64,000 nucleotides of DNA from Prochilodus magdalenae. Its lineage: Eukaryota > Chordata > Actinopteri > Characiformes > Prochilodontidae. The notes below the pieces were generated by a model that saw only the letters and a program-made list of their open reading frames with translations, ran no database searches and had not been told where the DNA came from. The position numbers and the translations under genes are program-made. The stretch covers positions 26,880 through 90,879 of the forward strand of contig JAMWET010004111.1 of the NCBI GenBank assembly GCA_024036415.1. The letters run 5' to 3'. Below are positions 25,640 to 31,025 of the stretch, in pieces; within the stretch, counting starts at the first letter, position 1; each line of letters opens with the position of its first letter.

Positions 25640-26215
25640 GCATCCATGTAGCAACCAGCTTTATATAAAGCCAACCATATAGCGAAACCTTAGCATGCGA
25701 TACCAGAGCAACTGCATAGCAGCACTCTAGCAACCAGCTGGGGTACCAAAGCAACCACCTACCTCCTTGAAACCGACTGGGATGCTATAGCAGCCACATA
25801 GAAACAATGTAGTGAAACCTTGGCAACCACCTGATAACACCCTAGCAATCAGCTTGATATGATGGCAGCCACCTTGCAACCCCCTAGGTGCAATACCATA
25901 GAGATTTCAAGTAGCACCTTAGCAACCAGCTGTGTACCCTAGTAACCAATGAGCTAAATCCTAACAGCCACTTGAGATACCATAGTAACTACAAAGCAAC
26001 AACCTGAAAAACCATAACACCACTTAGCAACACCCTAGTGATTCATTTGATACCATCGCAACCACGTAGAAACACCTTAGAGAGCGGCTTGATACCACAA
26101 CAGCAACGTAGTAACAACCTAGCAGCCAGCTGGGATACCATAGCAACTCCCTAGCAAGCACCCTAGCAACCACAGTGATGCCATAGCAATTGCCTAAGAA
26201 TGCCGTAGCAACCAT
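25640..26215 (+). repeat. Degenerate short tandem repeat (CTAGCAACCA...)
   Basis: Repeats of roughly 20 bp built on 'CCCTAGCAACCA', 'CATAGCAACCAC' and 'TAGCAACACC', heavily mutated. Ends where the 88-90-bp array begins. Non-coding. Confidence 0.85.
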
Positions 26216-29200
26216 CAGCAGTGTTATTGTAATACAGCAGTTCAAATAAAGGCCACCGGAGGGCGCACTGTACACTTTATAAACCATTACCTTATGCATA
26301 TCATACCACAGTGTAATCGTAATACAGCATTTCACATGAAGGCCACCAGAGGGCGGACTGTACACTTTATATACTAGTACCTTATGTACATTACAGCAGT
26401 GTTATTGTAATACAGCAGTTCAAAGAAAGGCCACCAGAGGGCGCACTGTACACCTTATAAACCATTACCTTATGCATATTACACCACAGTGTTATTGTAA
26501 TACAGCAGTTCAAAGAACGGCCACCAGAGGGCGCACTGTACACTTTATATACCAGTACCTTATGTACATTACAGCAGTGTTATTGTAATACAGCAGTTCA
26601 AAGAAAGGCCACTAGAGGGCGCACTGTACACTTTATAAACCATTACCTTACGCATATTATACCACAGTGTTATTGTAATACAGCAGTTCAAATAAAGGCC
26701 ACCGGAGGGCGCTCTGTACACTTTATATACAGTACCTTATGTATATAATACAACAATGTTATTGTAATACAGCAGTTCAAAAAAAGGCCACCAGAGGGCA
26801 GACTGTACACTTTATATACCAGTACCGTATGTACATTACAGCAGTGTTATTGTAATACAGCAGTTCAAATAAAGGCCACCAGAGGGCGCATTGTACACTT
26901 TATATACCAGTACCTTATATACATTACAGCAGTGTTATTGTAATACAGCAGTTCAAATAAAGGCCACCAGAGGGCGCACTGTACACTTTATATAACAGTA
27001 CCTTATGTATATAATAAAGCAATGTTATTGTAATACAGCAGTTCAAAGAAAGGCCACCAGAGGTCGCACTGTACACTTTATAAGCCATTACCTTATGCAT
27101 ATTACACCACAGTGTTATTGTAATACAGCAGTTCAAATAAAGGCCACCGGAGGGCGCACTGTACACTTTATATACAGTACCTTATGTATATAATACAGCA
27201 ATGTTATTGTAATACCGCAGTTCAAATAAAGGCCACCAGAGGGCGCACTGAAGACTTTATATACCATTACCTTATGCATATTATACCACAGTGTTATTGT
27301 AATACAGCAGTTCAAAGAAAGGCCACCAGAGGGCGCACTGTACACTTTATATACAGTACCTTATGTATATAATACAGCAATGTTATTGTAATAAAGCAGT
27401 TCAAAGAAAGGCCACCAGAGGGCGCACTGTACACTTTATATACAGTACCTTATGTATATAATACAGCAATGTTATTGTAATACAGCAGTTCAAATAAAGG
27501 CCACCGGAGGGCGCACTGTACACTTTATATACCATTACCTTATGCATATTATACCACAGTGTTATTGTAATACAGCAGTTCAAATAAAGGCCACCGGAGG
27601 GCGCACTGTACACTTTATATACCATTACCTTATGCATATTATACCACAGTGTTATTGTAATACAGCAGTTCAAATAAAGGCCACCAGAGGGCGCACTGTA
27701 CACTTTATTTACTAGTACCTTATGTACATTACAGCAGTGTTATTGTAATTCAGCAGTTCAAAGAAAGGCCACCAGAGGGCGCACTGTACACTTTATAAAC
27801 CATTACCTTATGCATATTATACCACAGTGTTATTGTAATACAGCAGTTCAAATAAAGGCCACCGGAGGGCGCTCTGTACACTTTATATACAGTACCTTAT
27901 GTATATAATACAACAATGTTATTGTAATACAGCAGTTCAAAAAAAGGCCACCAGAGGGCAGACTGTACACTTTATATACCAGTACCGTATGTACATTACA
28001 GCAGTGTTATTGTAATACAGCAGTTCAAATAAAGGCCACCAGAGGGCGCACTGTACACTTTATATAACAGTACCTTATGTATATAATAAAGCAATGTTAT
28101 TGTAATACAGCAGTTCAAAGAAAGGCCACCAGAGGTCGCACTGTACACTTTATAAACCATTACCTTATGCATATTACACCACAGTGTTATTGTAATACAG
28201 CAGTTCAAATAAAGGCCACCGGAGGGCGCACTGTACACTTTATATACAGTACCTTATGTATATAATACAGCAATGTTATTGTAATACCGCAGTTCAAATA
28301 AAGGCCACCAGAGGGCGCACTGAAGACTTTATATACCATTACCTTATGCATATTATACCACAGTGTTATTGTAATACAGCAGTTCAATTAAAGGCCACCA
28401 GAGGGCGCACTGTACACTTTATATACAGTACCTTATGTATATAATACAGCAATGTTATTGTAATAAAGCAGTTCAAAGAAAGGCCACCAGAGGGCGCACT
28501 GTACACTTTATATACAGTACCTTATGTATATAATACAGCAATGTTATTGTAATACAGCAGTTCAAATAAAGGCCACCGGAGGGCGCACTGTACACTTTAT
28601 ATACCATTACCTTATGCATATTATACCACAGTGTTATTGTAATACAGCAGTTCAAATAAAGGCCACCGGAGGGCGCACTGTACACTTTATATACCATTAC
28701 CTTATGCATATTATACCACAGTGTTATTGTAATACAGCAGTTCAAATAAAGGCCACCAGAGGGCGCACTGTACACTTTATTTACTAGTACGTTATGTACA
28801 TTACAGCAGTGTTATTGTAATACAGCAGTTCAAAGAAAGGCCACCGGAGGGCGCACTGTACACTTTATATACAGTACCTTATGTATATAATACAGCAATG
28901 TTATTGTAATACAGCAGTTCAAAGAAAGGCCACCAGAGGGCAGACTGTACACTTTATTTACTAGTACCTTATGTACATTACAGCAGTGTTATTGTAATAC
29001 AGCAGTTCAAAGAAAGGCCACCGGAGGGCGCACTGTACACTTTATATACAGTACCTTATGTATATAATACAGCAATGTTATTGTAATACAGCAGTTCAAA
29101 GAAAGGCCACCAGAGGGCAGACTGTACACTTTATATACAGTACCTTATGTATATAATACAGCAATGTTATTGTAATACAGCAGTTCAAAGAAAGGCCACC

Positions 29201-29873
29201 GGAGGGCGCACTGTACACTTTATATACAGTACCTTATGTATATAATACAGCAATGTTATTGTAATACAGCAGTTCAAATAAAGGCCACCGGAGGGCGCAC
29301 TGTACACTTTATATACCATTACCTTATGCTTATTATACCACAGTGTTATTGTAATACAGCAGTTCAAATAAAGGCCACCGGAGGGCGCACTGTACACTTT
29401 ATATACCATTACCTTATGCATATTATACCACAGTGTTATTGTAATACAGCAGTTCAAATAAAGGCCACCAGAGGGCGCACTGTACACTTTATTTACTAGT
29501 ACCTTATGTACATTACAGCAGTGTTATTGTAATACAGCAGTTCAAAGAAAGGCCACCGGAGGGCGCACTGTACACTTTATATACCAGTACCTTATGTATA
29601 TAATACAGCAATGTTATTGTAATACAGTAGTTCAAATAAAGGCCACCAGAGGGCGCACTGAAGACTTTATATACTATTACCTTATGCATATTATACCACA
29701 GTGTTATTGTAATACAGCACTTCAAATAAAGGCCACCGGAGGGCGCACTGTACACTTTATATACCAGTACCTTATGTACATTACAGCAGTGTTATTGAAA
29801 TACAGCAGTTCAAATAAAGGCGCACTGTACACTTTATGTACAACTACCTTATGTACATTTCAGCAGTGTTATT
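26215..29873 (+). repeat. Tandem array of ~88-90-bp units, each with a CTCF-like core
   Basis: About 40 head-to-tail units built from 'GTGTTATTGTAATACAGCAG', 'TTCAAATAAAGGCCACC', 'AGAGGGCGCACTGTACAC' and 'CCTTATGTACATTACAGCA'. Starts at 26399, 26489 and 26577 give periods of 90 and 88. Almost every unit has CCACCAGAGGGCGC, a full match to the vertebrate CTCF core CCASYAGRKGGCRS, or a variant (CCACCGGAGGGCGC; CCACTAGAGGGCGC; CCACCAGAGGGCAG). Alternating 3' variants (CATTACCTTATGCATAT versus CAGTACCTTATGTATAT) create a higher-order block: 26924-27703 recurs at 27996-28775, offset 1072 bp. The last unit before the transposon at 29880 has lost the core. Minus-strand frames such as 'MYSAPSGGLYLNCCITITL' are by-products. 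Confidence 0.95.
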
Positions 29874-29879
29874 GTAATA

Positions 29880-30928
29880 TATGGAGGACCGGATCTGCCT
29901 AAATTAAAAATAAATAAATAAATAAATAAAAGACTAAATAAATTAACATTTAAATAAAAATAACTAGAATTTGTATATATTGCTTGCTTTGATTTTATTT
30001 ATATGCTTATTTCCTTTTCTTGCATTTATATAGTCCTCATTTTATTTATTCCTGTACTGTTTATTAATGTTTTATTAATGTCTCCCTTCATTTTATATAT
30101 ATTTTCTGCATATATTATTTAAACATGGTCATTTTAAAATCTATTTATTTAATACATATTATTTAATATTAATATATATATTTTTATTAATTTATTTATT
30201 GATTTATTTCTGTTTTTCTTCTTTCGTATGATAATGAGGAGGCGTGTTTTTCATGTTCAGGCTTAGCAATCAAGTGCAGAACGACAGGAGCTGATTTGGA
30301 GCAGAGCTATGTAGCTTGGCTATGCGTTCGGGTGAAAGACTCTGAGAGGCTAAATGTCGGGGCGCAGGTCGGTGTCGGATCTGCTCAGAGAGGCAGCTTC
30401 CAGGTGTTGCATGATCTGAGTTTAGCAGGGAAAGGCGATGAACTACCTCCTCTAAATTTGTGAACACTATGGGGTCGATCTCTGTATCAGAAGATGTAGC
30501 ATAATGGAACAAACTGTCAGCCACAGCCTCCACCCGAAACAGCAAATCATCTGCACCTGCATTTTCAGCAGGGTCAGCTAGGAGTCTCAGGTGTCTTGCT
30601 ACCTGTCGCCTGTAAGCAGACATTAGTGCACCGTGGTGTTTATAGTTACTGCTGATGGAGCAAGACAATCGATCTACGGAATCTGCTGTCGATCAACCAA
30701 TAGGAATGTTAAGACACACTGACGTCATGGATTGACAGCCCCTTTATTACCATAAGGGTAAGGAAAAAAAAAAATACTATTTAAGTTTTTTATTTATTGA
30801 TGTACTTATTTCTATGCTTATTTATTTATTTTTAGATTTACCATCATTATTTCTTTACCATTTTAATTTAAGTATTAGTGTTTTATTTATTTATTTATTT
30901 ATTATTTTGGCAGATTCGGTCCTCCATA
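29880..30928. mobile_element. DNA transposon with 6-bp target duplication inside the CTCF-like array (IS3EU-like?)
   Basis: Left end TATGGAGGACCGGATCTGCC, right end the inverted copy with one mismatch (19 of 20 bp). Both ends continue into TAAATA-rich text. GTAATA flanks both sides (29874-29879 and 30929-30934), and the array unit reads GTTATT-GTAATA-CAGCAG without interruption elsewhere, so the empty site is known. TAY...RTA ends with 6-bp duplications fit, from memory, the IS3EU superfamily. The element is 1049 bp, AT-rich, and contains one open frame (30270-30668 minus). Confidence 0.82.
30270..30668 (-). pseudogene. Possible truncated transposase-associated ORF in the TIR element
   Basis: A 132-codon frame with a GC-richer composition than the AT-rich DNA around it. 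It includes 'RRQVARHLRLLADPAENAGA' and 'ATSSDTEIDPIVFTNLEEVV'. I do not recognise it firmly. It resembles, by memory only, the N-terminal helical region of fish integrase-core transposon proteins; no helix-turn-helix or DDE residues are present, so if so it is a fragment left by an internal deletion. Confidence 0.35.
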
Positions 30929-31025
30929 GTAATACAGCAGTTCAAATAAAGGCCACCAGAGGGCGCACTGTACCCTTTGTCAGTGTATACACTGGTACAT
31001 TCTGTACATTACTGCAGTGTTATTG
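30929..31025 (+). repeat. Last unit of the CTCF-like array, beyond the transposon
   Basis: It resumes with GTAATACAGCAG, then the CCACCAGAGGGCGC core at about 30951-30964, followed by a diverged tail ('TTTGTCAGTGTATACACTGG') ending 'CTGCAGTGTTATTGC'. It is the unit interrupted by the insertion at 29880. Confidence 0.9.

What the first reader, a model, noticed from the sequence alone, without database searches (positions are those of the whole stretch)
26215..31025. Natural tandem array of about 41 CTCF-like sites, all in one orientation
Seen: head-to-tail 88-90-bp units, nearly all with CCACCAGAGGGCGC or a one-base variant, always on the plus strand. Known: the vertebrate CTCF core is CCASYAGRKGGCRS and its orientation directs loop anchoring; DXZ4 is a precedent for a CTCF-bearing satellite. 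Inferred: the array is a strong, copy-number-variable chromatin boundary between an immune-type LRR gene and the tRNA/melatonin receptor side. Variation outside the core (CATTACC/CAGTACC, GCATAT/GTATAT) seems larger than in the core.
Basis: partly seen in the sequence, partly recalled or inferred. Interest (0 to 1): 0.88.

Follow-up and report, generated by a model that had tools for sequence, protein, structure and literature searches.

The report
Dense one-way array of CTCF-type sites
A probably fish genome carries about forty head-to-tail copies of a near-ideal binding site for CTCF, the protein that partitions vertebrate chromosomes; if CTCF binds there, the array would be an unusually dense natural one-way barrier, but binding has not been tested.

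Summary
The array is real. Units of 88-90 bp run from 26216 to 29879; a 1,049-bp inverted-repeat element (29880-30928) splits the last unit, which resumes to 31025. 41 of 42 units carry a core, all on the plus strand; one has lost its core. Cores score 15.3-21.8 bits on a recalled CTCF matrix (known sites: HS4 15.4, IL3 16.8); scores of 20 or more occurred 2 times in 40 Mb of simulated sequence. One sub-claim is not borne out: the core is not significantly less variable than the rest, and 16 of 41 cores carry G where the matrix is almost always A. A recent ~1-kb block duplication shows turnover. Best reading: a CTCF-site minisatellite acting, if bound, as a directional boundary that stops cohesin from the tRNA/melatonin-receptor side. 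Site identity is well supported by sequence; occupancy and boundary function are inference. New variant of a known kind (DXZ4-like CTCF tandem repeats): one site per 89 bp instead of about one per 3 kb.

The parts
26216..29879 (+). Tandem array, 88-90-bp units: 40 core-bearing units, one core-deleted unit and the first part of a 42nd
26250..29748 (+). 40 CTCF core motifs (19-bp form; first starts 26250, last ends 29748), 15.31-21.78 bits
26503..26512 (+). Example of the upstream CTCF motif, CAGCAGTTCA, 5 bp before the 19-bp core motif at 26518; of spacings 0-12 tested, 5 bp is best in 41 of 41 units
   Evidence: consensus and spacing
26656..27725 (+). First copy of a recent internal block duplication (units 6-17)
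   Evidence: 978 identities and 4 mismatches with 27816-28797; 88 gap positions, one unit missing from the second copy
27816..28797 (+). Second copy of the duplicated block (units 19-29)
29780..29857 (+). Unit that has lost its core (11 bp deleted; limits approximate); no CTCF match left
29880..30928 (.). Inserted element, 1,049 bp, with terminal inverted repeats (TATGGAGGACCG...), flanked on both sides by GTAATA; splits the last unit
30929..31025 (+). Remainder of the 42nd, diverged unit, with the 41st core at 30950-30968 (20.04 bits)
33311..33329 (-). Nearest convergent CTCF-like site of 13.8 bits or more right of the array (15.4 bits), upstream motif 8 of 10 at 5 bp; the three tRNA genes lie between it and the array
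31886..32827 (.). tRNA-Trp (-), tRNA-Cys (+), tRNA-Lys (-)
39311..39481 (+). Exon 1 of a melatonin receptor 1A-like gene
   Evidence: E 3.9e-17 to MT1 chain 6me2_A; coordinates

Best explanation
The array is a minisatellite whose repeated unit is a complete bipartite CTCF site: upstream motif CAGCAGTTCA, 5-bp spacer, core AGGCCACCAGAGGGCGC. Shown: sequence match to both halves at the canonical spacing, identical polarity, recent internal block duplication. Inferred: CTCF occupies many copies through zinc fingers 3-7 (core) and 9-11 (upstream motif), with its N-terminus facing right, so cohesin arriving from the tRNA/melatonin-receptor side is repeatedly stopped, giving a one-sided loop anchor and insulator whose strength rises with copy number. 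At 89-bp spacing no nucleosome (about 147 bp, recalled) fits between two bound neighbours, so a bound array should be an open, nucleosome-poor stretch of about 3.6 kb, or be occupied only in part. The G-form units (15.3 bits, like chick HS4) are expected to bind more weakly than the A-form (20.0 bits).
For: 41 of 41 cores score 15.3 bits or more; in 40 Mb of simulated sequence a score of 20 or more occurred 2 times (0.05 per Mb) and 15.3 or more 153 times (3.8 per Mb). The recalled matrix separates known sites from core-mutated versions: IL3 16.8 against -5.9, HS4 15.4 against -1.8 (oligos from PMC12885311). The upstream motif scores 9 of 10 in 34 units and 8 in 7, best at 5 bp in 41 of 41; background chance 0.0005 for 9 or more, 0.004 for 8 or more. 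5 bp is the most common spacing in print, 6 bp is frequent (PMC9004084 passages). Of 7 non-array sites of 13.8 bits or more in this window (0.54 expected), 2 also have the upstream motif (8 or more of 10) at exactly 5 bp; in simulation 1 of 364 such sites did. Zebrafish CTCF is enriched at TAD boundaries, with motifs preferentially convergent (PMC8438036 passages); the extended motif was found in all human and zebrafish datasets of PMC11472169 (passages). Several tandem copies insulated more than one (IL3 reporter and Sox2 insertions, as reported in PMC12885311 passages).
Against: No occupancy, methylation or contact data. All 41 sites descend from one founder, so they count as one observation. 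The core shows no significant extra constraint: 5 of 14 columns vary, against 39 of 76 elsewhere (Fisher p 0.39) and 17 of 45 in the rest of the conserved block (p 1.0); a high-frequency variant sits at a normally near-invariant core position. CpG observed/expected in the array (0.46) is close to the rest of the window (0.41). The upstream consensus was partly built from the IL3 oligo, whose 10 of 10 is therefore by construction, and the known insulator HS4 scores only 3 at 5 bp and 6 at 6 bp; 5 of the 7 non-array sites lack it. Motif presence does not ensure binding: 2 of 7 sites of a natural CTCF cluster were unbound (PMC7200164 passages). At Sox2 orientation mattered less, and one zebrafish study with tagged CTCF did not show boundary enrichment (PMC8438036). 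Other minisatellites lie next door, so expansion may be a local habit.
Confidence: 0.55

Rival explanations
1. Neutral minisatellite: a segment holding one genuine CTCF site, possibly from a mobile element, was amplified by unequal exchange or slippage in a region prone to it. Copies may bind CTCF in part or be silenced, with no selected boundary role.
For: No significant excess constraint on the core. Two arrays of another minisatellite (78-bp unit) lie within 7 kb and share a 21-bp stretch with the linker (local score 27; 0 of 300 letter shuffles reach it). Recent block duplication. In Arctic lamprey, transposon families carry CTCF-bound sites (PMC5504073 passages).
Against: It does not remove the expectation that CTCF will bind. 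The 59-bp block around the bipartite site has fewer common variants than the linker (6 of 59 against 12 of 31 columns, p 0.002), though its limits were set after seeing the alignment and rare variants do not differ significantly (17 of 59 against 14 of 31, p 0.16).
Confidence: 0.33
2. The motif resembles CTCF's but is bound by another factor, or by nothing, in this species.
For: No binding data. The first three positions read AGG (CGG in one unit), not TGG; a TGG-to-GTT change abolished binding in vitro, while changes of one or a few bases did not (PMC5498337, first third of the text read).
Against: Two separate halves match at the exact spacing; lamprey, chicken and human CTCF use the same two-part motif (PMC5504073 passages), so a fish is expected to.
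Confidence: 0.08
3. Chance resemblance in a low-complexity repeat.
For: None found.
Against: A score of 20 or more occurred 2 times in 40 Mb of simulated sequence, and 0 of 153 simulated sites of 15.3 or more also had 8 or more of 10 upstream bases at 5 bp.
Confidence: 0.02

Closest known systems
DXZ4/Dxz4 macrosatellite (mammalian X)
   Same: Tandem repeat with a CTCF site per unit and variable copy number (PMC8662614 passages); common polarity, inversion swaps the direction of contacts (PMC6985041 passages).
   Different: Unit about 3 kb in human, CpG-rich and transcribed, against 89 bp, 38% GC here; one CTCF site per about 3 kb against one per 89 bp; no known link to X inactivation here.
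Human 1q23.3 tRNA VNTR
   Same: Variable tandem repeat that binds CTCF, proposed boundary, tRNA genes (PMC4041453 abstract).
   Different: 7.3-kb units that contain the tRNA genes; here the tRNA genes lie beside the array.
Natural and engineered CTCF site clusters (Tfap2c-Bmp7 TZ/STITCH, Sox2 insertions, Pcdh)
   Same: Several sites act together as insulators (PMC7200164 passages; PMC12885311 passages; PMC7087399 abstract).
   Different: TZ/STITCH has seven sites in two divergent groups; the Sox2 insertions had up to four tandem sites. Here 41 near-identical copies of one founder face one way.
IL3 +2.9 kb insulator site
   Same: Core plus upstream motif at the same spacing; a single site insulates and needs the upstream motif (PMC12885311 passages).
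   Different: Single site; here amplified about 41 times.
hAT-Tip100 repeat #274 of Arctic lamprey
   Same: Repeat family carrying CTCF-bound sites (PMC5504073 passages).

Membership tests
CTCF binding site | 15-19-bp core motif | tested here: met
CTCF binding site | upstream motif 5-6 bp before the core (present in 13-15% of sites, so not required) | tested here: met
   8-9 of 10 at 5 bp in 41 of 41; consensus partly built from the IL3 oligo; HS4 lacks it
CTCF binding site | occupancy by CTCF in cells | not testable with these tools
   no functional data
CTCF-bearing tandem repeat (DXZ4-like in working) | head-to-tail units each with a CTCF site of the same polarity | tested here: met
   41 of 42 units
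CTCF-bearing tandem repeat (DXZ4-like in working) | CTCF site conserved better than the rest of the unit (between species in DXZ4) | tested here: inconclusive
   only within-array variation could be tested, and there no significant difference: 5 of 14 against 39 of 76 varying columns, p 0.39
DXZ4 orthologue | multi-kilobase, CpG-rich unit next to PLS3 on X | tested here: not met
   89-bp, 38% GC unit; PLS3 and chromosome not examined
Chromatin boundary / insulator | blocks contacts or enhancer action | not testable with these tools
   needs Hi-C or a reporter assay
Minisatellite | tandem units of tens of bases with copy turnover | tested here: met
   88-90-bp units; block duplication with 4 mismatches in 982 aligned bases; variation between individuals not tested

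The most novel reading that the evidence does not exclude
A natural, copy-number-variable, unidirectional CTCF 'ratchet': about 41 bipartite sites packed at 89 bp, too close for nucleosomes between bound neighbours, with neighbouring sites on opposite and alternate sites on the same face of the helix (8.50 and 17.00 turns at 10.5 bp per turn), forming a nucleosome-free one-way trap for cohesin whose strength varies between individuals.
Probability: 0.2. Interest if true: 0.85.

Novelty: new variant of a known kind. Interest (0 to 1): 0.6.

Why it matters
If bound, a natural series of dozens of near-identical one-way bipartite sites, with predicted strong (A) and weaker (G) forms interspersed, would let site number, spacing and direction be related to boundary strength at one locus, where the experiments I saw used a handful of sites. 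It would also be a CTCF tandem repeat with a unit some thirty times shorter than DXZ4's.

Tried and rejected
Core under special constraint: not supported by within-array variation. Preserved helical phase of unit pairs: neighbouring unit lengths are only weakly anticorrelated (r -0.23, p 0.10; without the duplicate block r -0.27, p 0.12), so not claimed as selected. Germline CpG protection: ratio 0.46 against 0.41, uninformative. Shared origin with the single site at 34042: its downstream flank resembles the unit's (P 0.008, but the best of 7 sites examined; its upstream flank does not, P 0.42), left open. Copies elsewhere: unit patterns gave 0 hits in viral contigs and 0 in bacterial/archaeal genome contigs; these collections are not of fish, so this says nothing about fish. 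The own-genome search did not complete. Print: searches for a fish or short-unit CTCF array listed none by title or abstract start; two searches listed 20 of 153 papers each and one search listed 12 of 28, the library is open-licence only, and I opened only some of the papers, mostly as passages.
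Full report
Observation. Units of 88-90 bp repeat head to tail from 26216. I count 42 units: 40 contiguous with a core, one with the core deleted by 11 bp (about 29780-29857, read) and a diverged last unit split by an inserted element; 41 cores in all, all on the plus strand. The right-hand remnant (30926-31025) aligns with the unit at 81% over 102 columns. The element at 29880-30928 has terminal inverted repeats and GTAATA on both sides; its minus-strand ORF (30270-30692) matches no Pfam family.

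Is it CTCF's motif? As a control, oligos printed in PMC12885311 (passages read) gave IL3 16.8 and HS4 15.4 bits, and the core-mutated versions -5.9 and -1.8. The 41 array cores score 15.31 (14), 16.59 (2), 17.07 (2) and 18.4-21.8 (23). In 40 Mb of first-order Markov sequence with the composition of the window outside the array, 15.3 or more occurred 153 times (3.8 per Mb) and 20 or more 2 times (0.05 per Mb). Only 23 of 41 fit the strict pattern CCASYAGRKGGCRS: 16 have A to G at position 9 (851 A to 32 G in the recalled matrix) and 2 have G to T in the GGG run.

New evidence: the upstream motif. CTCF fingers 9-11 read a second motif like CAGCTGTTCC, most often 5, frequently 6 bp before the core, present in 13-15% of sites (PMC12885311 passages; PMC9004084 passages). 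With a consensus joining that and the IL3 oligo (CWGCWGTTYC), every array core has its best match at 5 bp among spacings 0-12: 9 of 10 in 34 units, 8 of 10 in 7; background chance 0.0005 for 9 or more, 0.004 for 8 or more. Against the paper's consensus alone the array motif matches 8 of 10 (background 0.0006). This is one founding event, not 41. IL3's 10 of 10 is by construction; HS4, a known insulator, lacks the motif as I wrote it (3 at 5 bp, 6 at 6 bp). As an internal control, 7 non-array sites in the window score 13.8 or more (0.54 expected), and 2 of these 7 (18835+, 33311-) have the upstream motif at exactly 5 bp; the other 5 do not. In simulation 1 of 364 sites of 13.8 or more did.

Constraint. 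Diversity per column: core 0.075, all non-core 0.093, left flank 0.043, right flank 0.034, linker 0.173 (40 units, the split 41st left out). Varying columns: core 5 of 14; all the rest 39 of 76 (p 0.39); the rest of the conserved 59-bp block 17 of 45 (p 1.0). The 59-bp block has fewer common variants than the linker (6 of 59 against 12 of 31, p 0.002), rare variants not significantly (17 of 59 against 14 of 31, p 0.16); the block's limits were set after seeing the alignment, and repeat copies are not independent.

Turnover. Units 6-17 and 19-29 are a block duplication with 978 identities and 4 mismatches in 982 aligned bases, one 88-bp unit being absent from the second copy; units 35-37 repeat units 15-17 with 1 mismatch in 268. 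This supports, but does not show, copy-number variation between individuals.

Mechanism (inference). The ZF3/N-terminal side of CTCF lies downstream of the core, and insulation was greater when that side faced the enhancer (PMC12885311 passages), though at Sox2 orientation mattered less. The array should therefore stop cohesin, and enhancers, from the right, where three tRNA genes, a convergent site with an upstream motif at 33311 and exon 1 of a melatonin receptor 1A-like gene at 39311-39481 lie. The mean period of 89.23 bp is 8.50 helical turns and the pair 17.00; I do not claim that this is selected. A nucleosome needs about 147 bp (recalled), so adjacent bound sites exclude one.

Context. 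Left of the array lie 78-bp minisatellites (19860-20904, 22231-24932) whose unit shares 21 bp with the linker, which favours a locally repeat-prone neighbourhood. The LRR label of the left gene rests on weak Pfam matches (E 0.08 and 0.1, below cut-off).

Known relatives. CTCF-bearing tandem repeats exist: DXZ4 (PMC6985041, PMC3491370 and PMC8662614, passages) and the 1q23.3 tRNA repeat (PMC4041453, abstract and outline), with units of kilobases. Short-unit arrays like this were not among the papers listed by my searches (listings partly capped). PMC7200164 (passages) warns that 2 of 7 motif sites in a natural cluster were unbound.

Verdict. Observation confirmed; motif identity strong; boundary role plausible and untested; core-constraint claim not supported. 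Novelty: new variant of a known kind.

Noticed in passing
29880-30928: Inserted element with terminal inverted repeats and a flanking GTAATA duplication inside the array; minus-strand ORF without Pfam match.
   Followed up: partly
19860-20904 and 22231-24932: 78-bp minisatellite arrays whose unit shares an ATGTATATATTATAGTAGTGT-like stretch with the linker of the CTCF unit.
   Followed up: partly
31886-33329: Three tRNA genes lie between the plus-oriented array and a convergent CTCF-like site with upstream motif.
   Followed up: partly
34042-34074: Single CTCF-like site whose downstream flank CTGAACACTTTAT resembles the unit's CTGTACACTTTAT; possible relative of the founder.
   Followed up: partly
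56554-56572: Highest-scoring CTCF-like site of the window (22.1 bits), without upstream motif.
   Followed up: no
25900-26215: Degenerate CCTAGCAACC-type repeats directly left of the array.
   Followed up: no
37181-37311 and 38503-38544: Short tandem repeats rich in GGCGTATTTTACGCC-like, partly palindromic stretches.
   Followed up: no
6265-7300, 14276-16108: Five ORFs share a similar segment around VLPALQPVYQSAPAVW, like repeated exons; two of the five (6265-6783, 14276-14743) were scanned and match no Pfam family.
   Followed up: no
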